Assembly (NCBI GenBank): GCA_014871385.1
Contig: CM026433.1
Span: forward strand, 14,945,985-15,009,984
Length of the DNA: 64,000 bases
Direction: 5' to 3'
DNA from: Ceratodon purpureus
Taxonomy: Eukaryota; Streptophyta; Bryopsida; Pseudoditrichales; Ditrichaceae
In this document: in pieces, positions 5,780-51,160 of the stretch
Numbering within the stretch: position 1 is the stretch's first letter
Layout of the letters: each line of letters starts with the position of its first letter
Program-made: the position numbers and the translations under genes
Notes under the pieces: model-generated
Told to the model about the DNA's origin: nothing
The model's database searches: none
The model's input: the letters and a program-made list of their open reading frames with translations, nothing else

Positions 5780-5782
5780 AAT

Positions 5783-9625: not shown

Positions 9626-9744
9626 TAGTCATATCAGTTGAAATTGGCTTGGTAGTTGTTTTATACAAACTGTTTGATTTATTGGCACAGTTCATGTTTA
9701 GTATGGGGGCATAGGGGTCCAATGCCAAATTTTAGGTGGTTCCT

Positions 9745-9843: not shown

Positions 9844-9894
9844 GTCTGAGACAGTGGGGGTTTTACAAAATAAAGTCTGTAGTAAAAATACCGG

Positions 9895-10123: not shown

Positions 10124-10380
10124 CTTCCAGAATCTGAACAAGAACTTCCATACTCTCAACGGTGGCAAATTTCGAGATTTTATCTGATGTGGGCGGTTTT
10201 CTTTTTAATATTCACAGAATCAAGTTAGCTCGACACTCGCCATTTCGGATTTTCAAATTTATTTAATTATCTATGCTAAAATATGGTCAAAGGACAGTGA
10301 GGTCACATTTTTCTCAAACCTGTGGTCCTGTGGAAAACAATGATGTCAATTAAGGGTTCACTGCTCACTAGTTGTACATG

Positions 10381-10740: not shown

Positions 10741-11038
10741 CATAAATAAATCAAGTCCGTCTGAGTGATAGGTGGTTTTGGGCTTTTCGGTGAATGCATG
10801 CGTGTTGTTCAAAGACTAGCATGTGTCCGTTTTCCAACCAAGCTATGAGCAGAGATAGGAAGCTACTACTTTGAACTTTGGAATCACATTGTGAACACAC
10901 CCTTCGTCACAAAGTAAAATTTATACTTTAGCAATACTCTGCTTCTATTCCCTAATTCGTATCAGTTTCCATCTCAGTTTCTCACGGCGGGCCCGGGATT
11001 AGGCTGAAATACCTTAAGCTCATAATGCTGTTATTGTA

Positions 11039-18904: not shown

Positions 18905-21204
18905 ATGATTCCCTCGGCAGGATCAGCAGCAAAGCCGAATAAAAAGAGCAAAAACTATCCCAAGGTTTCACCTGCTTCTGCATATGCATGGCCTCTCATG
19001 CCATGGCCGGTCTTGTGGCCGATCACGTTGCTGCTTGGATGCGCTCTTACCATCTTCGTCGCCCTCTACCCTGGAGAATTTTATAAGCAGCAGCAGCAGC
19101 AACGGCAGGAGGAGCAGCAATCGGTGGCGCATTGGGAGCCGCAGCAGGGGACTGTCAAACTCGGGCCAGATGGGGTCCGTGATCTGGAGCTTCATCATGG
19201 TGTGGACGGAAAGGACAAGCTCGCTAAATTTTGTGAGGGCAGGTTGGTGTATGTGTACAACATTTCGGATGTTTACAATCGGAAGTTCGTGAGGGAGTGT
19301 GCCACTTTCAAAAAAGGGCGAGATCTGTGTATGTATATGGAGAATGGGGGGATGGGTCGAGGGTTTAGTTTAGGAGGACGGCCACCTGGGGAGGCAGGGG
19401 CACCTTGGTACAATACATGGCAGTTTGCGTTGGAGCTTTACTTCCACAAGAGGCTGTTGAGGCATCCGTGTGTGACAGATAGAGCGGAGCTTGCGAACGC
19501 GTTCTTTGTTCCGTATTACGCCGGGATGGACTTGTCGCGGAGGTTCACGCATCGGTTGGCGAAGGGCGAGCTGTACATGGAGCTCGCGAGGTGGTTGCAG
19601 GGGCAGGAGAGCTGGAAGCGGCGCCAGGGGCGCGACCATTTCATGATGCTGGGACGAATTGCGTCGGACTTTTATCGGCAGGGCGAGGATCCACGTTTGT
19701 GGGGAAACGAGGTGATTATTGCAAATCTCTTCTCTCTCGATCTTGATGACGGATTGCGGAAGGGTTTCATGATGTTCTATACGAACGTATGTCGAAAGTT
19801 GCATTCCTTGTTCGTCCACACAGAAGCAAAACTGAATTTGAACCTTGCAAGGGATGTCAGGTGGTCACTCTATGTAAATACTTTTGGATATTGGATTTTG
19901 AGCGACCCATGAGCTAACGGACTCTCGTTCCGTTACAAGCGCCAAGCTGATTTCGAACAGCAAACTCGAGGTGGTTGTCAATAATTAGAGGTTTGCATAG
20001 AATCTGCAACATGACATACTGTATCACGTGGTTTCTTCAGATGCTACTACAGAGGGCGTTTAAGAAAATGATCAAGCTGACAATTGAGCGCAGTTCAATA
20101 CGTCCAGACAATGACAAGGAGATTGCCATACCCTATCCCACCTATTACCACCCATCCTCGGACAGCCAGATCCAGAATATTGTTGACGGGATCAGCCAGG
20201 GCTCGCAGCGAAATTCACTGGTGACTATGGCTGCCGGTCAGCGCCGTCCCTCCGTCAACAGCATGAGATTCAAACTGATGAACCAGTGTGAGAATGATCC
20301 TCGCTGCACATTGCTGCTTTGTGAGGGCAACGAAGCTTCGCCTGGGCTCTTAGACGGGGTAAACACGAACATCCTTTGAATTCATGTCTGATATGAAAAT
20401 TCTTATGGTTCCACATTTAGATTTACAACTGCGAGCTTGCTGGGTCAAACTCCTTGTGAACTATGCACAGGGTTGATCATTCTCACACTGGTTCTTTGCA
20501 ACTACACCATTTTCCTATGTGGCAGAACTGTTCATTCTTCCTATTTATTTCTTGCAGGTTTTAAATCCACCTTCACCAGTGAAGCTAACCGGGAAAACCC
20601 TCAATATGTCCTGCAACAACCCTGCAATTCTCCTGGGTGCAATGCACCAGTCCCAGTTCTGCCTCCAGCCACCAGGTGACAGCCCCACTCGCAGATCGTT
20701 CTTTGATGCCATGCTCGCAGGTTGCATCCCTGTGATTTTCTCCAAGGACGCAGCGTGGACACAATATGTCCACCATCTTCCCAATGACGGCGCAAGCTAC
20801 TCCGTCTTCATTCCGGTATGCCTATCTAGTTCTGTTTGCATTTTCATTTCTTTTCCTCAATTTACCGGGTGTGAAATTGAGTCGAAGTCACACGTCCAGA
20901 GCACATTTTATTTACTGTCGAAAGAAACTATGTTAGATTGACTGAAGGGGAACATTTTGCTATGCAGATGAAGGTGGCTTCAAAGAGCAACGTCATTAAC
21001 ATCTTAGGCAGAATTCGGGAGCCAGAGATCAGAAAGATGCAACGTAACATTGCAAAGCTCCTCCCTTCAATCTTGTATGGCCATGTCAGGAGAGAGTACT
21101 CACCAAAATCTCCAGCCGGAACAATGGATGCATTCGAGATTGCCCTCACTGCGGTGCTGGAGAAAATGAAGGCTGAAAATCAACATAATCAAGATATTGA
21201 GTAG
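18905..21204 (+). CDS. GT47 exostosin-family glycosyltransferase, MUR3-like, copy 2
   Basis: Four exons: 18905-19711, 20041-20358, 20558-20815 and 20968-21204. Intron positions and phases match copy 1, giving 539 residues. The N-terminus is a short basic tail, a membrane anchor (WPITLLLGCALTIFVALY, about residues 39-56) and a Gln-rich stem encoded by a CAG-rich tract. The lumenal domain carries RLVYVYNISDVYNRKF, WQFALELYFHKRL, FVPYYAGMDLSRRF, DHFMMLGRIASDF, EIAIPYPTYYH, FCLQPPGDSPTRRSFFDAML and AGCIPVIFSKDAAW. Exon 1 stays open into intron 1 for about 200 bp; retention would give a truncated protein lacking the donor-sugar half. Exon 3 has exactly the same length as in copy 1 (258 nt). This is a tandem duplicate of the upstream gene. 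Which wall polymer it modifies is not known. Confidence 0.87.
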
Positions 21205-28200: not shown

Positions 28201-30752
28201 TGTGGAAAAGGTTTTTTTCTGTGAATAAAAATGCTACTTGACCATAAAACATTTTTATCATTACTTTAGTAGAATATAAATAACCACTTTAGATGATATT
28301 TATGAGTTGTAGATGCATTTTTGTACCAATCAGTGTGCACTATCAAACTCCTTTGCCTTGCTCCTTGGCCCTCCTAGAACTAAATTGTCAAGTAAATCTT
28401 TAGAGCTCGACCCACCCAAGGTTTTCAAATAAGGATTCATAATCTCTCAAGCCATTATTTCCATGCAATTGAAAAGAGAATTCATTAGCAGAGACTGATC
28501 CTCCTCATGTTCAGTGGCTTGCTCCTGGAAGAAGGCCAGAAACACACTGCTATGCTCAACGTTGGGTAAGCTATATTCGTCTGTATATTGCATTACTTAG
28601 ATGAAACTTGAACAGGTAAAACAAGGCCTCATCCCAACTGTGAAGTCTGGAGGCCCTCTGGCTGATGGCCATGCAAAAGAATGGGGTGCAGATGAGGAGA
28701 CTGCGGAACGTGTGGTATTAAAGTGCAGGAGTACTCGGACGAAGTACACAGACACAAGGCCAATAACTTCTCCTCACTGCCGTGACTGCTGCACCAGATT
28801 CTTCAATGTTCTTCCACTGGCCAGCCCCCAGATCAGCGGCGTCAGAGCATGGACTTGCCAGTGCAGCACTCAGCTAACGGAACAAATAAAGACAACAAAA
28901 GGAAAGAGTAAATAAAAACAAACCTTGACCCACCTGAGACTCTGAAAACAAGTCTAGGAGATGGAAGAGAGACATGACACAGACTGGTCTTGACATCGCC
29001 AGCAACCAACCTCATTGATCACGTCCTGCCTCATTCTCTGACGGCGCACTCGCCATGCTCAATGCTCCTCATGCCCACTAACTTAATTCCATCACCTCAG
29101 CTTTACTCCTTAACCACTGCTTGCAAACGGTCTCTTGTAGCACAAGTCATGAGCTCGATCCTGCTCGGATCAATCTCCATACGTACTTGAGAAGAGTTCT
29201 ACTCTCCAGTGCCGTGATTCTCAAGTTTTGATGTTTGCAACTTGAGAAGTTTCCTTGAGAAATCAGTTTGCTGCTCGTTAACACAATTGGGTATTAGCCA
29301 AAGCTGGTGCTTTAATGACTCAGGTGGTGTTGGAGTTGCAGTGTAGTTGAGAAGTTCAAGTTTACATACCGATTTGGCAGCTTAGACATGGGTTTTAGCA
29401 TTGTTGATTGAGTCGAGAGTAATCGACTTGGGTGGTGACGGTTACGTGCATGGACCTGTAGCGAGGCAGTCTTCGAGAGTTGTTGTCGGAAGGCTATGGT
29501 GAGATGCTGTTTCCATGTCTGGATCGTTAGTTCGGAAGGAGAAGCAGAGCACTCAGCCTTATAAGTTTGGTTGACGGCCTTAATGCAGCCTCCGTTTCGG
29601 CTCGAAAGGAAAAACTGATTTCGTCATCGAGCCACACGGGCCTCTCTGTAAGCTCGAGTACATACTCTTGGATTTCACTGCCATTGTTCACCGTTGAATT
29701 CTTGGATTTTGTGCTCATGACTGTAGTTTAGAGAGGAGTTTGTCTCCTCCACTTCTGACTTGTTCTCAGCTGTCAAGATCAAGTGTAGGATTCTGGTTGC
29801 TTCGCAAAGAGTGTCCGCTTTGCTTGAATTTTTCACGACTCAATTGCTTAAGGCAATTACTCTGTCGCATTGCTAACCTTTTCCGGAAAGCCTATGTTTT
29901 TCCTGGGAGCCTGTCCTTGGAGCCGTTCATTGCTGAGAAATTGGTCCCCTACGTACACTAACTTCTGTCTGTCAATGTACTAAGTCTTGCTTACTCACAT
30001 GTATGCCCGTGAAGACATGAACTTCGTCACTCGTACGGCAGTTGTACTTGTACTTTGTTGTTTGCTTGAGTGCTCCCAAGAGACAGAGTCACAGAAGTGT
30101 TACCTTTCTCTGGAGTTAATAGTTCCATCGAAAGAGTGGAGTCTTTGTTGGCCATTTCTTTACTTTCACTTGTTGAGAAGTCACTGGTTGGACTGTGTCT
30201 TGCACCTAAACCATTTCAATTCTTCGTTTGATTAGCTTGTGCCAGGAGTAAGCTATTCCTGCGTGTTGATGTTTTGGGGATTGGAAATGGCCACCATTGT
30301 TTATGGCGAACTCTGTAAATTGGTCCATAACTAGAGGTTCGAAGAGGTTCGGATACGTTTCATAGTTGCTTCACAGCAATTAGAGATAATCTTAAACACT
30401 GAGGAGATCAATCCTCTTTTACGTACTCATAACTATGCCTCTTATTTAAAGTGGCGTTATATCGGTGTTGCTTTTAGATTAGAGCCCACAGCTCAATGGG
30501 CTAACCACGCATTAAGTGGTACAACTGATGCGCGGTAAACGTTATCGGTGTATACATCACCTTCGCATACAAAGTCGAGATAGTCTGCCATCAGTTTGGA
30601 AGAATTTTCTTAAGTATTGCCAGTATCGGTTAAATTCTACTAATCTGAAATTTTTTGTTTGTGCAGCACAAACATTCAGTAAAATTGCTTTCATGATCAC
30701 GGACACGGGCGGAATTCTTTCAATACCATCGGCATCAGCCACAAAGCAAACA
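25288..30752. other. Long non-coding region, no gene supported
   Basis: About 5.4 kb with only short open frames, none recognisable. The longest are about 104 codons near 28601-28915 and 27042-27359, with irregular composition and no family motif. A tandem repeat lies at 26168-26236. The last 300 bp may hold the promoter and leader of the LRR gene: TATTTAAA at 30443-30450 and an acceptor-like TTTTTGTTTGTGCAG ending at about 30666 could belong to a 5' UTR intron. Confidence 0.5.
26168..26236. repeat. Degenerate tandem repeat, ~27-bp unit
   Basis: The unit GTTGAGGTGAATATTATCGAT and close variants occur two to three times in direct succession. Confidence 0.6.
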
Positions 30753-32206
30753 ATGGCACCTGCAAATGGCGTGAGTCGGGAGGATGACAAACGGCTGCGC
30801 CTCAGAACAGTGAGCATCACCCTGATTGCATTCACGTGGTTGTGCTCTTCATCGTTCGCAGGAGTCGATGCCCAGCTGTTGCACCCGACCGACATGATGG
30901 CCCTGCGCGCCATCAAGAACAGCATGGGCGACCTCCCAGGCGGCACATTCTTCTCCACATGGGTGTTCGCCTTCCGCATCAACCCCTGTCTGAGCTTCGC
31001 TGGGCTTCAATGTACCCGCATCGGCAGCTTCAACCGCATCTCTGCTCTCTCCCTCGGCCCCACTTCTAGCGGCACCCCCGGCCTCACCGGCACCCTGCCC
31101 ACCTCACTCGGCGACATGATCTATCTCCAAACCCTCACCATCTCTGCTGGTGCCATCCGAGGCCCCATCCCGGACACAATCGGCAACCTCAAAAAACTCA
31201 CCACCTTCTCATGCAGCTCCAACTACATATCTGGCCAAATTCCCCCATCCCTCGCCAACTTGCAGAGTCTCGAAGCCTTGCAGATCTGGAAGAACCAACT
31301 CACAGGCGAGATTCCTGCCGGAATTGGCACCATCAAGACGCTCAAAGTGCTCATCATGTCAGACAACCATCTCTATGGGCCCATTCCCAGCTTCGCACAA
31401 ACTTCGCTCATCCACTTCGATGTTCGCAACAACTATCTTTCAGGAGGTTTGCCTGAACTTCCGATCTCGGTGCAGTACTTGTCTGTGACGCAGAACCAGT
31501 TGTCTGGGTCGATAGACAGCTTGACAGGACTAGTGGGGCTTTCGTATCTGGACTTAAGCCTAAATGGATTCTCCGGAAGCATTCCGAGTGCGGTGTTTGG
31601 GTTCCCGCTCACGTTTCTGCTGCTGAGTCACAATCAGTTCCGGGGAGCTGTGAATGTGCCAGGCTTGGTAACCATCCCTGTGGTGGATTTGAGCCATAAC
31701 CATCTGCAGGGCAGCATATCGCCATATCTAGCCGGCTCCCAGAGCCTGTTCCTCAACAACAACTTGTTTGTGGGCACTGTGCCACAGGTAGCTAACAAAC
31801 CATATCTTTTCAATTCACGTCAACAATTAATCTTCATCAGAAATATCAAACTATGACCTGTTTGTGTGTATACATGAAAATTCGCATTTTAACATTAGTA
31901 TGAAGTGGATTGATTTCTGACATGTGAATTTACCTGGAATATTGCTCGCGGCAGGCCTTTGCGAACAAGATGCAGGATTCGACGCTGCAGTCGCTGTATC
32001 TGCAACACAACTACCTCACAGACTCGGGAGCGCTGGCAAGTGCGCCGCTACCTCCGAGTGTGGCAGTGTGCTTGCTCTACAACTGCATGGAGCCTCCCGC
32101 ACAGTCCCTGTGCCCTCCCAATGTGGCCATGCCGGCGGTCCGGCCGGGCTACCAGTGCCTCAAAGCAGACGCCGCTGCCGGCTCACCAGGCGATAGAAAA
32201 AAATAA
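30753..32206 (+). CDS. Secreted leucine-rich repeat protein
   Basis: Two exons: 30753-31787 and 31955-32206 (GT-AG, phase 0), giving 428 residues. I chose the ATG at 30753 because a signal peptide follows soon after (VSITLIAFTWLCSSSFAGVDA). An in-frame ATG at 30693 would give a 20-residue longer, less typical leader. A plant LRRNT-like cap comes first (DMMALRAIKNSMGD, with Cys pairs NPCLSFAGLQC). About ten plant-type LRRs of the L-x-G-x-I/L-P class then run to the end of exon 1 (for example LTGEIPAGIG, LSGGLPELP, FSGSIPSAVF). Exon 2 gives one more repeat and a Cys-containing cap (CLLYNCMEPPAQSLCPPN). There is no transmembrane segment or kinase after it, so it is probably an apoplastic LRR protein. 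Ligand and function are unknown. Confidence 0.8.
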
Positions 32207-34727
32207 TCCAGACCTCAATGTAATCTTCCAGACTCTCTTTCCCAACCACCTCTCCTTCAACATATATCTTTGTGTATAGCTCATGGATCATGCCAATATT
32301 ATTGTAACAGAGGCAATGCATGCCCTGTCTGTCTGTGACTTGCTTCACCGAGAAATTAAGCTGATCGATCACATCCAGCTGCAGACAGTGTGCACAATTT
32401 TGTAGAAAGGAAAATGTAAGAACTTGTAGTCCTAATTGTCTAGATGTAGTACGACTAGTTTCGTCAATTCCACATTGATAGAGATTAGCGCACCTTCTTA
32501 GCCGTGTGCGGAAACAAAAGTTTAGAGCATAGTTTTTCCTCCTCTTTGGATTCTTCCTGCATGGATTAGGAAATTAGATTGGAAGCATCATGCATGTTGA
32601 AAATTGAAAATTGTACTCAGTTTTCTCATTTCAGTATGGTCTTTGTTGGTTGTGAAAACTCTCTCTTCCAAATTGTTTAAAAATCCGGAAAAGGGCAACT
32701 TTTTCTTGTGTGTTTTGGCAATTTTAATTCTGATGTTATGGCATATCTGACTCATGAGCATCGACTATGGCTCCAGCCTCCAAATAGGAATTAAAAAGTT
32801 AGTTTGCTACCCGTGAAATGTGGTAAGACAGATTTTTGATCAATGTACAAGAGGGATGCATCACTCTTTGGGAAGTTTCAGAGGTCATCCAACTATTATC
32901 CTCTTTTTAGTAAGATAATTCGGTAATTTATGTATGATACTTATGTGTTGCTAATATGACAATTAGGTAAGAAAATGCCAAACCTCCAAAATCGAACACG
33001 TAAATTGGCACTTTCATTTGGGTGACATGTAAGTAATTGTCGGGTCTCCCCGATCATTGGGATGCATGCTTTGTTTCCCTCAATGTCATTGAGTCATGTT
33101 ATACTAAGATGTTTTTTTTCTGAGTGATAATGAAAAATGCTTCATCTTCTGGTATAATCTATAATCCACCCTGAAAACTGACAAATTAGAGCCCTTTGGC
33201 TCATGGCATAGGAGGTGTGATGAAGGTACACAACAGTCGGGCAAATTTAGAGAACATGAATGAAAAAAATTCAAAGTTTTTAGAGTTGTATTGAAATTAT
33301 ATGAATTTTTAAAGGTCTAAAAAGTAGAGTTCTAATGATTAATCGTAGATGTTTGTGAGAATTGTTACTAGCTAGCATTAAAAAGCAATATTTGATCAGC
33401 TACTAATAGGCCATGATGAGCCACTAATATTGATAATGAAGAGTAGGAAATTGATGTTATTGGGAAATGTTAATGGAGGTCTAAAATAATTGGTTGATGG
33501 TCCTTCTTAGTGAGTGGGAGCTGTACCTTAGGCATCAAACATACACTCTTTGGTATAGAAAAATTGTAACACATATAAAATGTATAATATTATATGTAAC
33601 ATTGAAAATAGATAATTATGATGTAGTTGATTATAAAATGTAGACTTGTCATAATATTTATCAACTACGTTAATGTAATTATATAGATATAACTACACCA
33701 ATGTAATAACATTATGAAGTTTTCACAATTAGATGTTATATTGTTACAATAAAAGTTAAAAAATTGAATATGGTATAAAAGAATAGAAAAATACTTAGCA
33801 TTATGTTATTGGGGGTTCTTAAAGAGAATAAAGCCAAATTAATTAGCAAGATTTATACAATTAGAAATGTTCTGTAAAATTTAGTTACCATATATGATAT
33901 GCAAAATAATAGAAAAAACTAGGCCTCGTATTATACACTATATAGGATGTGGTAAGATTGTACTCTTCACATGTCATCAAAAGAGATCATTTGTTTAAAA
34001 AATGATGTATTGTAATGCATTTAAAAAAACCAAATTATAGCACTCTAATTGTATAGTTCATATATATATTAATTATTTATGAATTGATAATGTTCATGAC
34101 ATTTGTTTAAAACACAATTTTTGAATTTAAAAATGTATATATTTTATTTAATTTTTAAAAATAAAACTATTAAAATCTAATAGTTTTTAGGTTTTAACTA
34201 AGGTATATTAAATTCATAAGCTTAAGAGAGGTCTATCACCATCAAAGTAAAATCGACTATTAAACCTTTTAATTTTTGATAACTACAACGATTCTATCTT
34301 AATCTAGAAACTTTTCATATCACCTTATAATCTCTTCATCGCATCATACAAGTTTTATTGTGAATATTTTTATAGAAAAAATTAGGTCATCACTTACTTA
34401 TTTTAAATCACTTTTAATTACAAATTTAAACATCAATATTGAAATATAAAATCTAAATGCTGCAGGTTTAAATTTATATATACATGAAAATATCAGATTA
34501 ATGATTTACGTTATAGCACCAGAGAATCAAAAATTTTTTAACATAAATTCAATACAATTTCTAAATATAGAAATACATTGTTAAATTTTTATTTATAATA
34601 TTTTTCAATGTATCATTTAAATGATGTTTTAATTGGAAGATTAAGTTCACTCTAATATTGACCACGTTGAAGTTCTTTTTCATAAAATACAATACATTGA
34701 TTGAAATCAATAATCTAGAATATTAAA
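32207..34727. other. Non-coding, AT content rising toward the AT-rich island
   Basis: No gene seen. From about 32.6 kb, and strongly from 33.5 kb, the sequence is dominated by A and T with very few GC-rich words. It contains the 3' flank of the LRR gene and the upstream region of the kinase gene. Confidence 0.55.
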
Positions 34728-36641
34728 ATGTCTCCTCACAAACCAATGATAATCAAAAAACAAATACAAAAGCGTAAATCAACATTCTTGCCATCTCGTC
34801 CAAGAAAAAAAGTCAAATTAGATTTTGAAATGACAAAGTTGATAAGTGTGGCAACTAAACAAGCTTTCAAAATGAAAAACATCACCAAAGGCAAAAGAGT
34901 AGTGAGTAAAAAAAGGAAATCAATGAACAAAGTTCACACAAAAAAAACAAGAAAGAGTAAAAAAATTAAAAAAAGTTCACCAAGTACTTCTTTAGAATGT
35001 AGTGAATCACAAACAATTTCTAATACTATAATTGATGAAAGTACATCACCAATGCTTTCTTCAAAAGATTCTCAAAGTGACAGGACAATAAATTCTGGAA
35101 AAAATAACGAGCATCTTTCTGAAAGCCATAGTAGTAAATTAATGGATTCAGACCATAATAGCAATGACATCAACAAAGATGAAATATTATCTTTGGATGT
35201 GGGAAGTACTTTTAAGCAAGGGCGATATAAAGTTCAACGAAAATTGGGATATGGTGCATTTTCTACAGTTTGGCTTGCTTGGGATGAAAAAGATAATAAA
35301 TATGTTGCTTTGAAGATTCAAAATTGTTCCAAAGATTGTATAGCAGCAGCTCGAGAAGAAATCAAAATTCATAAAGAAGTAGCAAAGTCCAATGTTGTCG
35401 GAGAAAAAGCTGTAGTAAAGCTTTTGGATCACTTTGAGCATAATATTTCTCGTTCTCGCAAGCACATATGTATGGTGTTTGAGTATCTAGGAGACAATCT
35501 ACTCACCCTTATTAAGGCTAACAAGTACAAAGGCCTTCCTTTAGACATAGTGAAGAATCTTGCAAAACAAATATTAACAGGATTAAACTACCTCCATAAA
35601 GACCTCAAAATTATTCACACGGATTTAAAACCTGAAAATGTGTTATTAGTATCTCCTCTTAATCCAAGTATTGACCCAAGACTTTCTTTGAATGAAAACT
35701 TCACACATGCAAAACAACGTCGTTCTTCCACACCTCCACCTTCTAAATTAAGACTCAACTTAAATTTGTCTCAAAATAAAGATATGAGTTTAAACAAACA
35801 TCAACATGATCATAATAATGAAAAATTATTGCAAACAAGTTCAGAAATTGGTTCTCAATCTCATAGCCCTCGGAGAAATGAAAATATTAATAATAATCCC
35901 AATGACACAACAATCAATAATGAAGTGCAAATTGATGAAGGTCAATTAGCTTCTGAACCAGAATCATTAGATAGACTTGCCATTGATTCAGACCCAGATA
36001 TTGCTCGGGATTTGAATATATCCGACAAAAGAAAAAAACCATCAAGTAGTGATGGAAGCCAACATCAACAAGTCAAATTTTCCATGCCCAACAATGATAA
36101 AAGATTTGAATCGCAAGGACCATCAAATTCTATTGATATTCGATGTAAAATTGTAGATTTAGGAACTGCGTGTTGGACCAATAAAATATTTACAAATGAT
36201 ATACAAACTCGTCAATATCGATGTCCGGAAGTTCTTTTAGGATGTAATTATTCAACTTCAGCAGATATGTGGTCTTTTGGATGTCTTGTATTTGAACTTG
36301 CTACAGGGAATGTATTGTTTGATCCTCGAACAGGAGGAAGTGCATATAATCGAGATGAAGATCATTTAGCTCAAATCATGGAAATTTTGGGTCCTATTCC
36401 TAAAAGTTTAGCATCTAAAGGTATCCATTCACATAACTATTTGACCAAAAATGGTGAATTGAAGCATAGAAAACCTAATGGTCATTGTTCGCTTTACAAA
36501 TTGCTAGTAAATGAGTATAATTTTAATGAAAAGGATGCAAAAGACTTTGCCGGATTTCTCCTACCACTATTAGAAGTGAATCCAAATAAGCGACCAAGTG
36601 CGGAAGAAAGTTTGCATCATCCATGGCTTAATAGCTCATAA
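34728..36641 (+). CDS. SRPK-type serine/threonine protein kinase, intronless
   Basis: 637 residues in one exon. Residues 1-85 are very basic (KKRKSMNKVHTKKTRKSKKI), probably nuclear localisation signals; 86-150 are Ser-rich. The kinase domain starts at GRYKVQRKLGYGAFSTVWLA (165-184), with VALK Lys196 and the catalytic loop HTDLKPEN (Asp299). A 160-residue hydrophilic spacer (about 315-472) follows, then VDLGTACW (477-483), with DLG in place of DFG as usual for SRPKs. Next come TRQYRCPEVLLG and WSFGCLVFELATGNVLFDPR, with the terminal motif HHPWLN. A kinase domain split by a spacer, the DLG and the LGDNLL-LIK motif identify an SR-protein kinase, which phosphorylates Arg-Ser splicing factors. 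SPLNPSIDPR after HTDLKPEN resembles plant SRPKs. Lack of introns suggests a retrocopy. All key catalytic residues are kept. Confidence 0.9.
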   Translation: MSPHKPMIIKKQIQKRKSTFLPSRPRKKVKLDFEMTKLISVATKQAFKMKNITKGKRVVSKKRKSMNKVHTKKTRKSKKIKKSSPSTSLECSESQTISNTIIDESTSPMLSSKDSQSDRTINSGKNNEHLSESHSSKLMDSDHNSNDINKDEILSLDVGSTFKQGRYKVQRKLGYGAFSTVWLAWDEKDNKYVALKIQNCSKDCIAAAREEIKIHKEVAKSNVVGEKAVVKLLDHFEHNISRSRKHICMVFEYLGDNLLTLIKANKYKGLPLDIVKNLAKQILTGLNYLHKDLKIIHTDLKPENVLLVSPLNPSIDPRLSLNENFTHAKQRRSSTPPPSKLRLNLNLSQNKDMSLNKHQHDHNNEKLLQTSSEIGSQSHSPRRNENINNNPNDTTINNEVQIDEGQLASEPESLDRLAIDSDPDIARDLNISDKRKKPSSSDGSQHQQVKFSMPNNDKRFESQGPSNSIDIRCKIVDLGTACWTNKIFTNDIQTRQYRCPEVLLGCNYSTSADMWSFGCLVFELATGNVLFDPRTGGSAYNRDEDHLAQIMEILGPIPKSLASKGIHSHNYLTKNGELKHRKPNGHCSLYKLLVNEYNFNEKDAKDFAGFLLPLLEVNPNKRPSAEESLHHPWLNSS

Positions 36642-37254
36642 ACTTAATTTCCTTTTCTAATCGATTTTGATCAATTAGAACAATGTTTATTGTTGAATAT
36701 TAGAAGGATTAATGAAGAATGATTTTATTTTTTTTGAAAATTCAAAATTCAAAATTTTGTAACTAAGTTTTAATGAACTCTTTTTAAGTACATTGATTCT
36801 AAATAACTATCTTTATTCAAAAATGAGCTCTACAAATAATTAAGTTTATATAAAATAATATGGAATCAGTTCAAAATTTGATTTTATTTCAAATATGATG
36901 TAGTTTATTTCAAATAATTATTGGAAAAAAATTCAATTATACAAGGTGATGTATTTTATAGAAAGTGATTATTTTTGGATTTTACAAAAAAAAATTAAAC
37001 AGAATATAAATCATAAAGAATAAAGTGTGCATAGATTTACATAAAATCTAAAATTTGTTTCATAAATTCACTTCAATTTTTAATCTATCACTTAAATAAA
37101 ATCAAGCTTGGTATTTATTTATTTTAAGATTTTAAGAGACGCTATGATTTTCGTTACAAAATTTCTTCTCATATATACAAAATAGTTTGGAAATTTTTTG
37201 ACTATTTTACAAAAATATTGTACAAAACTCTATTCACCTAAAATAATTGTATGT
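36642..37254. other. AT-rich spacer between convergent SRPK and CCDC40 genes
   Basis: No gene. It contains the 3' ends of two convergent genes. I saw no poly-A tract or target duplication that would mark retroposition of the kinase. Confidence 0.5.
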
Positions 37255-39398
37255 TTATTGTGGAGATTTAAGAGCCAATTCTATTTGAATGATTAAACTA
37301 TCTAATTTTTGTTGCATCAATGGCAATTGTTCACTCAACTCATTAATAACTTCTATTAGTGTAGTTCCTCTCGTTTTAGCATCTGTCAAATCTTCATTGA
37401 TACTTTTCTTCACAACAACACCTTTCCATTTATTATTTTTGAAATCTTCATGCTTCTTAACTAGACGTTGATACATAGCAGTTGCCAAAAATGCCCTTGA
37501 TCTTGCATTGACAATTATTCTTAATCTTTCCCTAAACACAAAAATGTTGATTTAATAATCTAGTCTACAAAATTAGAAATTTAAAAAATCAAATAATTAT
37601 TTGACAACATTCTAATAGGACATGTTGTTTAGAAATATACTTGCAATCTTCTTGTTGGACAAGCACTGTACTAAGCTTGTCATTTAGAATTGGTATTTTA
37701 TCATTTAAGTTGTTCTTTTGTTCTTCAAGTTCAATCAACCTATATAAAATAAATTAATATCAGTATGTTTTTTGTAAAGTTCATGATATAGTAGGAAAAA
37801 TGCAAGATAAAATTATTAATTTTGTAAAAAAGATAAACTTTGGTTAGAATTTTGAAAAGCTTATTAATTAGAATAAGTTTAAGAATTATCAAGTCAAATA
37901 TATGAAATGGACCGAAAATTAAATACACCACATACTATTTGATTCAAAAACTTAAGTTATATATTGAGATTTATTGAAAGAATTTGTTTAATTGAAGAAA
38001 AAATCTATAAAAACATATATTTTTAGAAGAATAAACAAGTTACAAATAGATGAAAAGATGACTCCATTTCAATGTTATAATTATTAGAATTTGGACTTAA
38101 AAAATTTCAAAAAAATAAATCTTGTATTACAATTTATTTCTAATTGAAAAGAAAAAAAAATCATTAATGTTATATTAAGAATATAATTACAATAAAAGAA
38201 AAAATATTAAAATTCCATACATAATCAATGTGAAAATTTTAAGTTTTGTTTTGAAATCCATAATTAACACATGTCTCCAAAATAAATTTTCAATAGGATT
38301 TTTATATTTGGATTTTAAAATTCATCAATTATTTTTTTTTTTCAAAAATAATCATAAAAATGTAGACTACTTAATCTAGTTATCAACAAATAATTTGAAA
38401 GTATCAAATTAGTCACTCTTTAAAATAAATGGGGTTTTGTGATTAATATATACATGTTATAAAAGTAACATCATAATTTTTTACTTTAGAAAAATGTAAT
38501 TATATTGCATTTTATCTTTGAAGAAATGATACCTCTTATCACATTCTACAACACTTTTATCTGTATCTCTTATGGCTTTCTTCAAATCTCCTGCTGCTCG
38601 AGCCAAACCAGCTTCAAAACCCGTGGGACCTTGGATACCTTTTCGATAGCAAACGCCCTATAATTAAAGCATGTAGTTTAATATAATACAATGGATTGCA
38701 TTTAACTTGTCAAAAATATGAAATTATGTAATCATATTCATATATATACGTTTAACACCCTCAAAGGATTTTTTTGGATTTTCACCATAACAAAAATAAT
38801 TTATGCTCCAAGTATATTAAAAAAATAGTATATTTTAATAAAATCTTTAATTATCTTAGGCAAAAAGAAAGTTCTATCATTTTTGTAGATATATATTATT
38901 CTAAATATTTCAACCTTTAATTTCGGGAAAAAAATACCAAAACTTAGAAGAAAGTAAATGTTAGATACTCCTTTAATAATTTTTAAATTTCAATTTAATC
39001 TTGTAAAGAATCAATCAATCAATCTATTAATCTATAAATTTTAGATTTTAACCTATTGACTATTAGATATTGCAAGCTTTGTTAAAATTATAGAATATAA
39101 TAAATTTTTTATTGAAATCTCTCAATTATTCAAAATACAAAATTGAACCTTTAAAATTGTAATAAAAAACAAACCTCCATTTTGTTTGTAATGGCTTTAC
39201 GACTATCAACTTTCAATTCCAAAGCATTGATTAATTTTTTTCTTTGAACATTGAGAGTATCAAGTTCATATTGCATACGATCTACTGATCTTTTTAATGC
39301 TGACAACTCAGCAGATCCTACATTTGGATCTATTGCAGCCTATAATATTCAAAGATGTTATCTTTAAATACAAATAGTTACAGGTTTTAATCATATTA

Positions 39399-39493
<95 letters not shown>

Positions 39494-42400
39494 CATAAAA
39501 ATATTTCAAAGTTTATAATATCACATTTTGTTTTGATATTTTTAAACATGGTATGTAAGCAAAACATTTAGTAGTATTATGATAGTAGTAGAATATATAT
39601 ATATATACATACATATATACATACATACATACATTGTAGCATCATAACAAGTCACCTTCTATCAAATTAGCAGCCTCAGTAAAAGAATGTTTTCAAAATT
39701 TATCCAAAGTAAGAAATCACTAGGAATTACTTCAAATGATTTAGAAATAACAAAGAATTAGAATTTCTTTTTTGAAGAATTTACAATTTTTTGATGTTAT
39801 TAAATTTCAACAAATCTGCTCAAGTGCCATGGTATGGTATAGATATGATATAACTAAATAAAAAATCTCAATTTTTTTTTAAAACTATATTAATATATAT
39901 GTTTTATTTTTAGTTACTTTGTCTTACCTGAGTTTCAATTTCAAAGGATACTTTATATCTCCATAGCATTACATGGTGTTCCAATTCATCTAAATGTTTA
40001 GAAGCATGATCTTTTTCTGCTATTGAATTATCTAATTGAGATTGCAATTCCATTGTATCAGCAGCCAAATCTTTTAAAGCCAAATAATGTTGAATTTGCA
40101 TATTTTCTGTAATATCTAGCAAAGAAGTTTCCAAAGTTTTATTTTTTCCAATCAAATCATTCAACCTACAATGAATCCAAGGTCAAGGATTTTAAAAAAT
40201 TAGGCATTTATTGAAAAAAAGAAAAAGATAATCATAGACTATTTGAATATATTAAAACTATGAATTCAAACATTACAATATTAAGAAAAGTGAAATCTTT
40301 GTGTTTTAGATATCTTTAAAATATAATTCAAATTAAAAAATATAAGATATAACAATAATTAATGAATTATTTACATATTACGATAATTACATATAACATC
40401 TTTTTCATTACAATCATCATTTAATAATAATACATAAATCATAAAACATTACCTGGTAATTAAATTACGCTTTTGGCCAATTCCAATATTGAGGTCTTTA
40501 ATAGCTTTTACTAACATATTGTATTGCATATCAACTCTATATTTTCTTTGAGTCAACACTCCTTGATCATAGGCCGCACGTTGTGCTTTCTCTGATAATG
40601 AATTGACTTCATTTTGAAGAACTACAAGTGAAGTTTGTAAAGACAACCACCGCTTTTGAGATTCATTGGATTCTTTCATTTTTTGGTTAATTTCTATTTT
40701 TAAACTATGCATCATAGCCTCCCATGGCGATGAAGCACTATCATCAAAATTAGCTGTTAATTGTTCATATTTTCTAGTTAATCGTATAATTTCTTTTGTT
40801 TTTATATCTACTTCTCGTTCTTTTTGTTTGATCTCTGCGTCAAATTTTGATATGAGATTATATTTTGAAGCGACATTGTCATTTACAGCTTTCAATGCAG
40901 AGGCTACATCTTGATTGTAAGCTTGCACGGCTAGAATATCACAACGAATGCGAGAAAGTTCATGATTTAAATCTGTAGCCATGCTATCTTCGTCTTTAAC
41001 AAGTTTTCTCAACTCCCTTATATTTGCAGCTGTTGCTTCGGCTCCTTTTTCTTCTAAAATTACTTGTTCTAATAAACCCGATAATATTTTATTTTCAAGT
41101 TCATGAATCTTAGATGTCTCTCTTCTATATTGTTTATTAATTTCCTGCAAGTTATAAGCATATAATTATATCAAATGTCAAATCTTTCTTTGATTCATAC
41201 CATTTGTTTAGTAAACATAAATTCAAGATTTTCAAAAATACATATAATTTAATAGGAACATAATATTCTTTCTTAGTAAAATAAAATATTTACCTTAATC
41301 TCAGCTTCCATTTTCAAAATATCTTCAGCAATTAATTCTATATGACCTTGTATCTTTTCAACTTTACCAAGAACTTTAGCATATTGTTGAAGTATTTTTA
41401 TTCGCCTTGGTTTGACAAAATCAATATATTTTTGTGTTTCTTTCATACTACTATCAATTTTTAAAAGCATAAATTTAGACCGGTCATTCATTTTTGTCAC
41501 CCTCGCAGTATCTTTAATATATCTTTTCTTTTCCGTCATTATTCCAAGCTTGGACTCTGCTTGTTGGTGCATTGCAATTCTTAAAATCTATATTATACAT
41601 ATGATTAAAAATAAATATTATTTTCATTCATTTATGATTGAAATTTAGAAGAAGAAGACTTATTTTAAAATTATCAGATGTTTTGTAAAAAGAAACATTT
41701 TAAAATTAAAATTAAACATATCATTAAAATTGGTATATTAATATGAAAATATGTTGTCTTTGATTTAGAAATAAGCAGTTTTGATGAAAAATTATGCTTG
41801 AAAGATTATATACAAGGTTGAATAAAACTAAACTATATGCTTGATGTGTTATATAATAATAAAAATAATATACCTATGTCAATTTTATATATGAATTTGT
41901 TGTTTTTTTTTCAATTTTTTGAAAAACATAAATTACTTTTACCTTTATAGCTCGGTCACATCGAACCAAAACAACCAAAGTTGAATTCCATTGAAATGTT
42001 AATTGCCTTTTTTCATAATGAATTGAACCCATTTCTATATCAGCTTCACGTAGTGCTAGATTTGATATTTTTGATTCTCTTTTTTGAGCTGCAAATATAA
42101 AAGTATAAAAGATATTAACTTGCTAATATTGGTGTTAATAGATAAATTGAATTAAATTATTATTTAATTAATGTTAATTTAAAAAGCATATATACCAAAT
42201 TATAATATATAAAAGAAACCAAGTTATGTAATAAACATGTTATATCAAAGAAATTAACAAAACAATAATGGTATGTGCAAAGGTAGCTTAAACATCTTAA
42301 AATTAATGAAACCTTCAAGTTGTGCTTTAGCCATTGCAACTTTATCACTAATTTGTTTGATGCGTTCTTGACATTCATCAATGGCTACATCTTGTTTCAT

Positions 42401-43095
42401 TTTAAGAACTTCTATCGCTGTTACTCCTTCTTCTGTGGCATATGTAGCACGTCTATTTAATGCAACATCTCCTCTAATTTTCTCATTAAATTGTTTAACA
42501 TTTTTAACAGTATTAGTAATATTATCGAGTTCTTGTCTTGTTTCATTTGTTTTTTGTGTCAATTTTTTGTGCTCATCTGATCGTAAATCCCAGTGTTTTT
42601 GGTTTTTATCCAACTCCTCCCTAGCCTAAAATCCAACAAATCAAAAATAAAAAAATAAAAAAGAATTGATTAGATAATAAGATAATTATTGAAAATAATC
42701 TAAATCCATGACAATCCAACTATGTATATAATCCAAGAAACATGCAAATAAAGTTATATGACCTTTTTATGAGCTTGAGCAGCTGCGGTTAAAGCAATAG
42801 TTGTTTTATTCAAGCTTGCATGGAGACCGGAAAGATTGCATTGTAGATCATATAATTGCACTCCAGCCTCTTCTCGATCTTTTGTGGCACGCACTAATTG
42901 CCTTTTTTGTTCATAAATTCGGTCTTCAATTTCATTTTTTCTTTCCAATAATTGCTTTTTAAGCTTCTCTTGTACTTCTTGCAATACTTTGTCATCACGA
43001 CGGTCTGTACTTAAACTACTTGGTGGAGTCATCAATGATATAGTTTCTTCGTGATCAGAGCCTTCATGGCTATTGTTACTTCCTTGATTGGCCAT
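37255..43095 (-). CDS. CCDC40: CCDC40 (FAP172-like) axonemal ruler protein
   Basis: Ten exons on the minus strand: 43095-42763, 42625-42313, 42088-41943, 41587-41294, 41144-40453, 40165-39928, 39339-39175, 38657-38533, 37739-37641 and 37531-37255. All introns are GT-AG and the frame stays open through every junction, giving 893 residues. The protein is coiled coil almost throughout after a short Ser-rich head. Diagnostic segments match animal and algal CCDC40: [20 protein letters not shown] in exon 3, [18 protein letters not shown] in exon 5 and [15 protein letters not shown] in exon 6. CCDC40 pairs with CCDC39 to form the 96-nm ruler that places inner dynein arms and radial spokes along cilia. 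In a land plant it can only serve motile sperm. Introns are extremely AT-rich, one with a long TA microsatellite. Start: first ATG of exon 1, with stops upstream. Confidence 0.88.
39405..39491. repeat. (TA)n microsatellite in a CCDC40 intron
   Basis: About 43 uninterrupted AT units in the intron between exons 6 and 7. A second, shorter AT/ATAC run lies at about 39594-39634. Confidence 0.95.
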
Positions 43096-44870
43096 AGTGT
43101 AACAATTTAGTCTACTTCAAAATAAATGAATGTAAAGAAAATTCTTTTGAATTCAATTAGTAAGTGTCCAAAAAGTTTGTTTTTGACTTAATTTCTTTGT
43201 TGTACTCCATTCTCCAAATTGTAATACAATATGATTTCTACAACAAATACACTTCTTGTATTCAAAAGACCTACAAATGAATTGAATGAAATATACTTAA
43301 TAAATGTATTTGAATTTTTTTAGTACTTATTATGATAAAAATTTGAATAATGTATTTAACTTATATTTATTCACAAAAAAGTTGCAACTAACTTAAATTA
43401 TTAAGAACATAGTATTCAAAACATATTGAATGATCTAAATATTTTTCATTGCATTATGTACATTCACAAGTCAACATGCATAGATATAATTCAAAATACA
43501 AATTTATGAAGCAAAGCATTTTGTTAAATACAAAACATGTCTTTAATAAATTCAAAAATCATGATATAAATTGCATTGTCAATTACATATATTAGGTTTC
43601 TTGTTCAATCAAAGTTGATAAACAATATTGAACATCATATAAAAACTATAAAATTCGATATTTTGTATAGAGGCTGGATAATTAAATACCATGTATTCAA
43701 ATTTAGATTACTAATATTAGAGAATTATATGTGATTCAAACGTACCTTTATAAATTTAGTATTGATGCTCTATAATGTGTGAAATTGTTGTTTCTTCAAT
43801 TATGGTTTAAGATACAAAATTTAATTCAAAATTTTTATACAAAGAGAAACTATGGTTTTGTTGAATAGGTTCTAAAACCACATATTTATATAAAAATCCA
43901 TATTGCAACAATGTTTTGTATTTTATAGGTTTCAATTATATAATCAGAAGGTGTACATTCAATTATAAATCAAATTCACTTAAGATTAAAAAAATCTATT
44001 TTAGAAATTACAAGTTATTGAATAAAATCCATGAGGTTATTGTTAAAAAATTGTACACATATATAAATTTTAACAAGTTGTCAAAAAACTATAAATGTCC
44101 CATTGGATTGGCCGTTGCAAATTGAACAAAGATAGTTTATGAATTGCAACAAAAATTCAATACAATCTACAATAATAAACCATCCCACAGTCATAATAGG
44201 AAATTTCTTTGTTTCAACCACGCGTCTTTGCTTCATTCACCAAATCTCAAAACAAACCATTCTCAAAAGTCTTGAAATCAACTTTATAAAAATATATTAA
44301 AAAAATCCTTCACTACTCAATCGATCTCCACAACAATACTTGCAACTCCATCTCCCTCAATCTTAGAACTTGCTGAAAAAGCAAAAATCACACCATTCAT
44401 TTTAACAAAGAAAGATTCATATTCCACAACCTTGTCATTCCATAAGTTTACGCTTTGATAATATATTTTTTCAGAAATCCAATTAAAAGAGACTCTACTT
44501 ATAATTGTGAGTGGACCCTTTTTTTCCTTCTTCATGAATCTCAATTCACCTTCCTGATTCCGAAAACCCTACCAAAACCCTAACCTCAAACCAAGGAATC
44601 AACCTCAAATTAGGGCAAAACCAGAGCCCAGCAAGGGCAACAGAATGAATAAATGTATGGATGAATAAATAGATGAATGAATGAGGGGAACAGCAACTTC
44701 AGCCGAACTTACACACCCTCCAGAAGATCTGAATCCTGGGCCGTCAGATAAGCAATAACACCCAATCTGAACCGTTGGGGAGGTGCAGCCCCCTTGGGCA
44801 CCACTCCCCCTGATCCCATGCCCAAAAACATGGGTTCCCTGGCATCCAGATTTGAACAAATTAATTTAAA

Positions 44871-44901
<31 letters not shown>

Positions 44902-46905: not shown

Positions 46906-46914
46906 GCGTTGGCA

Positions 46915-48329
46915 ATGGAATCTTTGGCTTTTGCCACCTTCGCGGTGGCGCCATCCAGTGCGAGGACAACGAATCCGAGACCGAAGTTTTGTGCACAAGG
47001 TTGCGTGAAATGCAGTCCAGTGTCGTTATCTCTTCGGTCTTCAACTCTCTCGTCGTCAAGGCGATCGGAGTGCTCTTCCTCATCTACAAGTTTGAGCGAG
47101 TCACAGTTCTATGGAGATCAGTTCAAGGCTGCTGAGAAAGCAACAAGCAGAATCAACAGGCGAGTGCTCATGCGAAGCGTTCGAGTGGTTTTCGTGGATG
47201 AATGCGGATCTGAGAAGGGGAGGGACACAGATGCACAGAATTTGACCAAAGAGGAACCCAAGCGATCGACCAACGGGCATGCTAATGGCTATGCCCCCGC
47301 ATCTTTACAAACCCCTAGTCTCGAGGATGTATCAGCGCGAGGGTTTAACGGATCAATGCCCTCAAATGGAGCCTCCTCTTCGGTAGTTTTGAATCCAGCA
47401 ACGGAACAGCAACTTTCGGATGTTGATGAGCTTTGGCTCACAATCAAAGCGGAGGCCAGACTGGAATCTGAGAAGGAGCCAGCTCTTGCGTCGTACTTCT
47501 ACTCTTCAGTCATTTCTCACAGGTATGCGCACTATTTTAATAGCTCATGAATATATGGGATAATTCGGTTTTTACCCATGAATTAGCAGCTCAGGGAGTA
47601 TTTATATCTTTGTCTCTGTGCAGGTCTTTGGAGCGGGCTCTGGCATTCCACCTCAGCAACAAATTGAGCAACCCCACTCTCCTCAGCACCCAACTGTTTG
47701 GTCTCATTGTGGACATCTTTAACAGTGACGACGCTATACGACGTGCCATACGGGAAGATTTGAAAGCAGTCAGGACGAAGGATCCCGCATGCTCCTCATA
47801 CTGTCACTGCCTCTTGTATTTCAAGGGCTTTCTCGCATGTCAAGCGTACAGGGTGTCACACTGGCTCTGGAAGAACGACCGCTCCTCGCTTGCATTCTTA
47901 ATGCAAAGCCGGGTGTCGGAAGTTTTCCATGTGGACATCCACCCGGCTGCCAAAATTGGTTCTGGAGTTCTCTTTGACCACGCAACGGGGTTGGTTGTTG
48001 GCGAGACAGCCACCATTGGAAGCAACGTGTCGATCCTGCACAACGTTACTCTGGGAGGAACGGGTTCAATCATCGGTGATCGGCACCCAAAGATTGGAGA
48101 TGGGGTTCTTATTGGTGCAGGAGCAATTCTCCTTGGTAACATAAAAATAGGAGAAGGCGCTAAGATTGGGTCTGGGTCTCTTGTGCTGATTGACGTTCCG
48201 CCTCACACAACAGCTGTGGGGAATCCTGCACGTCTGGTTGGTGGCAAACAAAGCCCCACGAAGCTCAAGGAAATCCCGAGTGAGACCATGGACCATACTA
48301 TCAAAGGTTGGTCTGACTATGTTATTTGA
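46915..48329 (+). CDS. Serine O-acetyltransferase, organelle-targeted
   Basis: Two exons: 46915-47522 and 47624-48329 (GT-AG, phase 2), giving 437 residues. It makes O-acetylserine from serine and acetyl-CoA, the committed step of cysteine synthesis. Residues 1 to about 70 are rich in Ser, Ala and Arg with few acids, a plastid or mitochondrial transit peptide. A variable linker runs to about 165. The SATase N-terminal helical domain (DELWLTIKAEARLESEKEPA) follows, then the left-handed beta-helix of hexapeptide repeats with the active-site motifs FDHATGLVVGETA and GDRHPKIGDGVLIGAG. The protein ends in WSDYVI: the terminal Ile tail is what inserts into O-acetylserine (thiol) lyase to form the cysteine synthase complex in plants, so complex formation is likely kept. 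The unusual length is due to the extended N-terminus. Confidence 0.93.
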
Positions 48330-50512: not shown

Positions 50513-51025
50513 TCAGTAGGGCGGCTGCCCATTGACGTTTCCACGAGGATTGTAACTGCAAATAATGTACGTACCGCCGTCGTCGCACGCGACGGACGCA
50601 CACCCGACGTTGGTGGTATCCCGCCACACCACCTGAGTGTAGTGCCCACACACCTCGCCATCGGCGCAACTGTTCGAATCGTAGTCGTAGTACTGCTTCT
50701 CGTCCACCCACGACGCCACCGCGTCGCCTGGAGTAGCCGAGTCGCTGCTACTCCAGTACAGATTCTCTCCATACGGCCCGTCCGAGTGCTGCAGCGGCAA
50801 ACAGCTGCTGGCCTGGCTCTCCGCGTACGAGCGCGCATAATCCTCCAGAGTCGAGTCCCACACCAGCGGTCCCACGCCCACGTCGCTCCTCGCAGCGTTG
50901 TGAGGCGTCAAGTACTCATCTTCCTGCGCACTAGCAAATCCAGCTTTACCTCGATCATCTGCTGCAAACACCACCATCACAATCATCACCAGTGCGAGAA
51001 GGTCCATGAAATTGTGTCGCGCCAT
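50513..51025 (-). CDS. Pathogenesis-related protein 1 (CAP/SCP family)
   Basis: A single-exon gene of 170 residues from the ATG at 51025. An in-frame ATG at 51061 is possible, but the shorter form puts the signal peptide (FMDLLALVMIVMVVFAADD) in the usual place. The mature protein begins near EDEYLTPHNAARSDVGV and contains the CAP signatures GPLVWDSTLEDYA, GENLYW, CGHYTQVVWRDTTNVGCA and YIICSYNPRGNVNGQPPY. The six Cys of plant PR-1 are in place, as are the cavity His and Glu (PHNAAR, GENLY, GHYTQ). PR-1 proteins are secreted, bind sterols and are often induced by pathogens. A TATA box lies about 140 bp upstream of the start. Strong GC bias compared with the surrounding DNA. Confidence 0.93.
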   Translation of the reverse strand: MARHNFMDLLALVMIVMVVFAADDRGKAGFASAQEDEYLTPHNAARSDVGVGPLVWDSTLEDYARSYAESQASSCLPLQHSDGPYGENLYWSSSDSATPGDAVASWVDEKQYYDYDSNSCADGEVCGHYTQVVWRDTTNVGCASVACDDGGTYIICSYNPRGNVNGQPPY

Positions 51026-51160
51026 CGCTGCAAGCGCGCTTAACGTGATCAATATCGACAACCCGCAGTTGTGGATCAGAATTTACAGTTCAGAACTAGA
51101 CTATCTGAGCACAGATCGGAAGATGGAGTTGTGGATCGCGGAACTTGAGATATGTGAGCT

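What the first reader, a model, noticed from the sequence alone, without database searches (positions are those of the whole stretch)
32600..44600. AT-rich island carrying an intact sperm-flagellum gene and an intronless kinase
Both genes and all non-coding DNA here are far richer in AT than the genes on either side (LRR, SAT, PR-1, GT47), third codon positions included. Yet both reading frames are intact, and CCDC40 keeps nine perfect introns. Mere non-coding decay cannot explain this. Possible causes: a low-recombination or former sex-chromosome segment moved here, strong mutational bias linked to germline expression or chromatin, or transfer from another AT-rich genome. Plant-type signatures in the kinase argue against a foreign donor for that gene.
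Basis: partly seen in the sequence, partly recalled or inferred. Interest (0 to 1): 0.8.

Follow-up and report, generated by a model that had tools for sequence, protein, structure and literature searches.

The report
Old AT-rich domain holding sperm gene
In what is probably a moss genome, an ordinary stretch of chromosome is strikingly AT-rich yet holds an intact sperm-tail gene and an intact kinase gene; an old duplicate of part of it shows the same contrast, so it does not look like foreign DNA or an assembly error, and some but not all of the sperm genes tested lean the same way.

Summary
Window 33,251-44,500 is 25.8% GC against 41.7% outside. Both genes are intact: CCDC40 (10 exons, GC3 0.216) and a single-exon SRPK-family kinase (GC3 0.219).

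The island is not unique and does not look foreign or misassembled. A second autosomal locus, on C3, carries the nearest genome-wide paralogs of the kinase (65% identical, also one open frame, GC3 0.211, also in AT-rich DNA) and of the neighbouring LRR gene (70%; GC3 0.57), in the same order. The contrast thus exists in both copies of an old duplicated block (kinase dS about 1.2, dN 0.25).

Sperm-related genes lean AT-rich, unevenly. All 9 dynein heavy chain loci found have flanks of at most 0.365 GC, and HAP2 is low; radial spoke RSP4/6 and two DRC4 genes are ordinary. Without the finding's genes and the C3 kinase, 14 sperm-type genes have median GC3 0.393 against 0.488 for 17 family-drawn controls (one-sided p = 0.009).

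I favour a regional, largely strand-symmetric, old bias tied to sperm-restricted genes, possibly through weak GC-biased conversion. Mechanism and organism (probably the moss Ceratodon purpureus) are inferred.

The parts
33251..44500 (.). AT-rich island (25.8% GC)
   Evidence: maximum-likelihood segmentation; profile
34728..36641 (+). single-exon SRPK-family protein kinase, 637 aa, GC3 0.219
   Evidence: open frame, SRPK1 match E 1e-94, Pfam Pkinase, GC3
37255..43095 (-). CCDC40 gene, 10 exons, 9 GT-AG introns, 893 aa, GC3 0.216
   Evidence: spliced model; FAP172/CCDC40 match E 1.2e-96
40453..41144 (-). largest exon of CCDC40, used as the genome query; only its own place matched at E <= 0.001
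30516..32203 (+). LRR gene left of the island, normal composition (GC3 0.61 over 30516-31853); nearest paralog on C3 beside the second kinase
   Evidence: Pfam
46909..48329 (+). serine acetyltransferase right of the island, normal composition
   Evidence: Pfam SATase_N and Hexapep; GC
50513..51061 (-). PR-1-like CAP protein, normal composition (GC3 0.70)
   Evidence: Pfam CAP
15094..20941 (+). two neighbouring GT47 genes, normal composition (GC3 0.69 and 0.61 in their first frames)
   Evidence: Pfam; no C3 match for the second one

Best explanation
The island is a long-standing, vertically inherited GC-poor domain of an autosome. It holds two intact genes: CCDC40, a subunit of the axonemal ruler that a plant of this kind should need only in its swimming sperm, and a single-exon SRPK-family kinase, possibly also male-germline. 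The AT bias is regional: it covers introns, spacers, upstream DNA and synonymous sites. It was present before, or arose in both copies since, the duplication that made the C13 and C3 blocks. The same tendency, weaker, appears around dynein heavy chain genes and HAP2. My preferred mechanism, which is inferred: genes silent and closed in meiotic cells get few recombination events, so they lack GC-biased conversion and drift to an AT-biased mutational equilibrium, while broadly expressed neighbours are held at higher GC. Shown here: composition, intact frames, the paired block, purifying selection on the kinase pair, and a partial association with sperm-type genes. Inferred: expression pattern, recombination rate, biased conversion.
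For: Segmentation and gene models. AT-rich DNA around the closest kinase paralog, with the LRR neighbour conserved in order; about 1.0 kb of the 8.5-kb C3 stretch is a dispersed repeat, the rest matched none of the other sampled DNA, and none of the C13 island did. Kinase pair dS 1.19 and dN 0.25 over 594 codons; LRR pair GC3 0.61 and 0.57. SRPK genes on C11 and C8, split over several matches and so probably intron-bearing, have GC3 0.58 and 0.54 over the matched exon, so the family as such is not AT-rich. Dynein heavy chain: 9 of 9 loci with flank GC 0.24-0.365, while 7.9% of 165 overlapping 3-kb windows from 11 arbitrarily placed autosomal pieces fall below 0.365. HAP2 exon GC3 0.32 with flanks 0.33 and 0.21. 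Excluding CCDC40 and the two single-exon kinases, 14 sperm-type genes have median GC3 0.393 against 0.488 in 17 family-drawn controls, one-sided p = 0.009. Little strand skew in CCDC40 introns (GC skew -0.02, TA skew 0.08) argues for a regional rather than transcription-coupled process. In humans, GC and codon usage follow meiotic recombination through biased conversion (abstract of PMC5576983), though there meiotic expression lowers recombination.
Against: The association with sperm genes is uneven: RSP4/6 (GC3 about 0.54), DRC4 on C5 and C1 (0.50, 0.63) and a DRC1/2-type exon (0.41) are not extreme; the signal rests mainly on dyneins, which are related to each other and so not independent. 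Controls were few, and the background pieces come from 4 of the autosomal contigs only. AT-rich 1-kb windows (below 0.30) make up 6.4% of 110 sampled autosomal windows, so some islands need no gene-class cause. The probable sex chromosome, which should not recombine, is not generally AT-rich, contrary to a simple no-recombination model, though its sampled DNA looks mostly like repeats. Upstream DNA of both genes has some GC skew (0.17 and 0.10). No expression, recombination or population data were available. The human result has the opposite sign for meiotically silent genes, so the mechanism borrows only the role of recombination.
Confidence: 0.48

Rival explanations
1. The island is one of many ordinary GC-poor patches of this genome; the two genes happen to lie in it, and sperm function has nothing to do with it.
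For: 6.4% of 110 sampled autosomal 1-kb windows are below 0.30 GC; several sampled 10-kb pieces hold AT-rich stretches in which I recognised no gene; four non-dynein flagellar genes are not extreme.
Against: The patches seen in sampled pieces were at most about 4 kb and mostly looked non-coding, whereas here 11 kb with two intact genes is affected; the kinase's C3 sister has AT-rich surroundings too; all 9 dynein loci found lie in GC-poor DNA.
Confidence: 0.31
2. Cytosine methylation in tissues where these genes are silent drives C-to-T decay and makes the island AT-rich.
For: CpG observed/expected is 0.16 in CCDC40 introns and 0.49 over the island against 0.61 and 0.74 outside.
Against: CpG loss alone removes too few G+C (reasoning, not computed); fourfold sites fall to 0.17-0.19; 8 of 9 other AT-rich stretches visible have CpG 0.21-0.55, the ninth 1.07; TpG observed/expected is nearly the same inside (1.24) and outside (1.23, 1.17).
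Confidence: 0.12
3. The segment came from a low-recombination sex chromosome.
For: Three of the 9 dynein loci are on C6, the 110-Mb contig that is probably the sex chromosome; 17.3% of 75 overlapping C6 windows are below 0.365 GC against 7.9% on autosomes.
Against: C6 3-kb windows average 0.42 GC, close to the autosomal 0.438; the sister block is on C3 with the same neighbour.
Confidence: 0.05
4. Horizontal transfer or misassembly.
For: Large compositional step with a fairly steep right edge.
Against: Gradual left edge; nine GT-AG introns; paired block on C3; diverged SRPK relatives in the same genome. CCDC40 itself is not part of the paired block.
Confidence: 0.03
5. Transcription-coupled mutation in sperm precursors.
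For: The island coincides with two genes; upstream GC skew of 0.17 and 0.10.
Against: CCDC40 introns show almost no strand skew (GC skew -0.02, TA skew 0.08), and about 1.4 kb upstream of each start codon is about as AT-rich.
Confidence: 0.04

Closest known systems
GC-content variation driven by GC-biased gene conversion and meiotic expression in human genes (Pouyet et al. 2017, PMC5576983; abstract and section list seen)
   Same: Synonymous sites and regional GC shift together, with functional class
   Different: There genes expressed in meiosis recombine less; here the proposal is that genes closed in meiosis do. No recombination data for this genome.
CCDC40 / FAP172 axonemal ruler protein
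   Same: Match to Chlamydomonas FAP172 over nearly the whole length; a ccdc39 mutant is male sterile in the moss Physcomitrium (passage in PMC8648619; that CCDC39 is the partner of CCDC40 is recalled)
   Different: Only its base composition is unusual
SRPK family (SRPK1, SRPK2, Sky1)
   Same: Split kinase domain with a long spacer, aligning with SRPK1; HTDLKPEN and DLGTACW motifs
   Different: One exon, with a lysine-rich N-terminal tail (31 K/R against 6 D/E in 110 residues); a diverged pair (C13, C3) beside another pair on C8 and C11

Membership tests
SRPK family kinase | Best solved relatives are SRPKs | tested here: met
   the 13 best of the 60 shown (647 matched) are SRPK1, SRPK2 or Sky1, E 1e-94 to 1.1e-81; the next has E 9.1e-40
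SRPK family kinase | Kinase domain split by a spacer | tested here: met
   two matched stretches, 133-340 and 464-636; spacer of about 172 residues
SRPK family kinase | Phosphorylates RS-rich substrates | not testable with these tools
   needs an assay
CCDC40 | Full-length similarity to CCDC40/FAP172 | tested here: met
   residues 32-884 against 26-898, E 1.2e-96; all 6 matches at E <= 1e-5 are FAP172, CCDC40 or a coiled-coil protein
CCDC40 | Acts with CCDC39 in the axoneme | not tested
   CCDC39 was not searched for in the genome
Biased-conversion-poor domain | Low GC at synonymous sites, introns and spacers together | tested here: met
   GC4 0.17-0.19 and introns 0.17-0.20; upstream DNA 0.23-0.24 and the spacer 0.19
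Biased-conversion-poor domain | Low meiotic recombination | not testable with these tools
   no map or population data
Biased-conversion-poor domain | Low GC across the sperm gene class | tested here: inconclusive
   dynein loci and HAP2 low; RSP4/6 and two DRC4 ordinary
Relocated sex-chromosome segment | AT-rich source chromosome and no autosomal counterpart | tested here: not met
   C6 mean 0.42 in 5 sampled pieces; counterpart of the LRR-kinase part on C3
Horizontal transfer | No close relatives or conserved setting in the host genome | tested here: not met
   kinase and LRR; CCDC40 has no second copy, so this feature says nothing about it

The most novel reading that the evidence does not exclude
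Mosses carry two base-composition classes of genes, and the AT-rich class marks genes confined to the male germline. The single-exon SRPK pair would then be sperm kinases acting on sperm chromatin through their lysine-rich tails, by analogy (recalled, not tested) with SRPK1 acting on protamine in mammals. Base composition would predict sperm-restricted expression and give a direct test of biased conversion in a haploid-dominant organism.
Probability: 0.2. Interest if true: 0.7.

Novelty: new member of a known kind. Interest (0 to 1): 0.42.

Why it matters
Regional base composition that appears in both copies of an old duplicated block, while the neighbouring gene stays at ordinary GC in both, suggests that gene-scale forces rather than chance decay set composition here. 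If the link with sperm genes holds genome-wide, a moss, with gametes made by mitosis and meiosis confined to the capsule, would be a clean system for separating recombination, transcription and methylation as causes of GC variation. Full-text searches (listings only, with passages of a few papers) brought up nothing that I recognised as describing this link; that library lacks most subscription papers and the Ceratodon genome paper itself.

Tried and rejected
Horizontal transfer, misassembly and sex-chromosome origin were set aside for the reasons given. Matching repeats at the two edges: no shared exact 14-mer, direct or inverted, between 32,201-33,600 and 43,801-45,200. Non-coding homology between the two islands: only the LRR and kinase matched collinearly; one further match (window 33,175-33,504 to C3) was out of order and is probably a repeat. 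A dispersed AT-rich repeat covers about 1.0 kb of the 8.5-kb C3 stretch (3,364,336-3,365,189 and a 173-base piece) and so explains a small part of that island. The GT47 query has no C3 match, so the paired block rests on two genes, and CCDC40's largest exon was not found on C3. A sampled AT-rich stretch (L020, C13 at 8.00 Mb) looked to me like a DRC4 gene; Pfam gave no DRC4 or GAS family (one weak TACC match, E 0.023), the trypanin match had E 3.2, and no convincing match to this genome's own DRC4 loci appeared, so it was not counted. HAP2's second matched piece contains stops and probably intron; the pooled HAP2 value uses both pieces, and one search gives them separately. Gene-level dynein values pool exons by proximity (13 matches, 9 loci; several matches run over a stop and so into intron). 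Kinesins were taken as controls without sorting out possible flagellar ones, 10 of 167 matches; chaperonins 7 of 102 matches. Genes of the window and others met by chance were left out of the family-drawn control set and included in the wider one (27 controls, p = 0.0007 with the three genes excluded). The autosomal background pieces stood at round positions that I chose on C13, C3, C11 and C8; a properly random set could not be fetched. RSP3 (PF06098) and serine acetyltransferase searches of the genome did not complete.

Full report
What is there. The window lies at contig C13:14,945,985-15,009,984 of a 362-Mb assembly in 151 contigs, whose contig C6 is 110.5 Mb. A genome of about 360 Mb with sex chromosomes over 100 Mb fits the moss Ceratodon purpureus as described in passages of PMC8000587. 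This identification is inferred, not tested. An AT-rich segment runs from 33,251 to 44,500 (25.8% GC inside, 41.7% outside). On 500-base blocks its log-likelihood ratio is 506, against at most 199 in 500 block shuffles. Its left edge is a gradient of about 1.5 kb, its right edge steeper.

The genes. CCDC40 on the minus strand splices cleanly: 10 exons, 9 GT-AG introns, 893 residues, GC3 0.216, introns 17-20% GC. It matches Chlamydomonas FAP172 over almost its whole length. Its largest exon matched nowhere else in the genome at E 0.001 or better. The kinase on the plus strand is a single open frame of 637 residues, GC3 0.219. It is an SRPK: the 13 best solved matches are SRPK1, SRPK2 or Sky1, the domain is split by a spacer of about 172 residues, and the HTDLKPEN and DLGTACW motifs are present. 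Its first 110 residues hold 31 lysines and arginines against 6 acidic residues. Neighbouring LRR, serine acetyltransferase, PR-1 and GT47 genes have GC3 0.50-0.70.

A second island. The kinase's closest relative is on C3 at 3.361 Mb: 65% identical, also a single open frame, GC3 0.211, with DNA of 23-29% GC on either side. Next to it, in the same order and orientation, lies the closest relative of the window's LRR gene (70% identical; the next best match in the genome is 38%). The LRR copies have GC3 0.61 and 0.57. Synonymous divergence is high for both pairs (kinase dS 1.19, LRR dS 1.92, near saturation), and the kinase pair has dN 0.25. About 1.0 kb of the 8.5-kb C3 stretch is a dispersed AT-rich repeat; the rest of it, and all of the C13 island, matched none of 18 other fetched pieces and the rest of the window. 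So two autosomal blocks, apparently duplicated long ago, both have an AT-rich kinase beside an LRR gene of normal composition. This speaks strongly against recent transfer, a recent move from a sex chromosome and misassembly for that part; CCDC40 itself has no second copy. The SRPK genes on C11 and C8, whose matches fall in several pieces, have GC3 0.58 and 0.54 over the matched exon, so low GC is not a property of the family. GT47 and CCDC40 have no C3 match, as expected if one copy was lost after duplication, so the paired block rests on two genes.

Is it a sperm-gene property? I tested families chosen by function. Dynein heavy chain (13 exon matches, 9 loci by proximity): GC3 0.27-0.45, flanks 0.24-0.365 at 9 of 9 loci; among 165 overlapping 3-kb windows from 11 arbitrarily placed autosomal pieces, 7.9% fall below 0.365. 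HAP2, the gamete fusion gene: one clean exon at GC3 0.32 with flanks 0.33 and 0.21, and a second piece at 0.175 that includes stops. Against: radial spoke RSP4/6 exons at 0.45-0.61, DRC4 on C5 and C1 at about 0.50 and 0.63 with flanks near 0.40, a DRC1/2-type exon at 0.41. Controls: seven chaperonin exons 0.40-0.52 and ten kinesin exons 0.35-0.71. Leaving out CCDC40 and both single-exon kinases, 14 sperm-type genes have median GC3 0.393 against 0.488 in the 17 family-drawn controls (one-sided p = 0.009); for the 13 flagellar loci alone p = 0.016; 5 of 14 lie below the lowest control. So there is a tendency in this small sample, but it is uneven and carried by dyneins and HAP2, and at gene level none of the other genes tested is as AT-rich as these three. 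Relatedness of the dynein genes makes the p values optimistic.

What kind of bias. Synonymous sites, introns, spacers and upstream DNA shift together. CCDC40 introns show almost no strand skew, although the upstream DNA of both genes has a GC skew of 0.17 and 0.10; on the whole this speaks against transcription-coupled mutation. CpG is depleted (0.16 in introns), but 8 of 9 other AT-rich stretches visible show 0.21-0.55 (the ninth 1.07), and CpG loss alone should not bring fourfold sites to 0.17-0.19. The probable sex chromosome is not generally AT-rich in 50 kb sampled (mean 0.42 against 0.438; 17.3% against 7.9% of windows below 0.365), so lack of recombination alone does not seem to make DNA AT-rich here, although what was sampled looks mostly like repeats.

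Reading. I think the island is an old GC-poor domain whose composition follows from where and when its genes are active. The preferred mechanism is weak GC-biased conversion in genes that are closed in meiotic cells. This is inferred, with the human work (abstract of PMC5576983) supporting only the general role of recombination. The chief rival is that this genome has many GC-poor patches and the two genes merely sit in one. The kinase's expression is unknown; its link with sperm rests on composition and adjacency only.

Noticed in passing
window 4943-12287: Cluster of DNA transposon remnants: Plant_tran/DDE_Tnp_4, DDE_Tnp_1_7 and a Tc1-like frame with DDE_3 and HTH_Tnp_Tc3_2.
   Followed up: no
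L020:1-2000 (C13 at 8.00 Mb): AT-rich (about 25%) coding-like pieces that resemble DRC4 to my eye; not confirmed by any search.
   Followed up: partly
C13:8155372 and C13:8192929; C6:30088137 and C6:30166747; C3:17493844 and C3:17506344: Kinesin (two cases) and chaperonin gene pairs with near-equal scores in opposite orientation 12-79 kb apart, suggestive of large inverted duplications; identity not measured.
   Followed up: no
C13:9534396, 9574145, 9612740, 9642208: Four kinesin matches of near-equal score on one strand over about 108 kb, probably tandem copies.
   Followed up: no
L027 (C8 at 4.00 Mb): 1-kb blocks of 62-72% GC beside blocks of 31-32% GC; the AT-rich part has CpG near expectation.
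   Followed up: no
L002 (C3 kinase copy), N-terminus: Lysine-rich unit of about 10 residues repeated about four times at the start of the kinase.
   Followed up: no
L009:1010-1845, L012:4336-5189 and L021:1967-2780: A dispersed AT-rich repeat, 75-76% identical between copies, one of them at the edge of the C3 island.
   Followed up: partly
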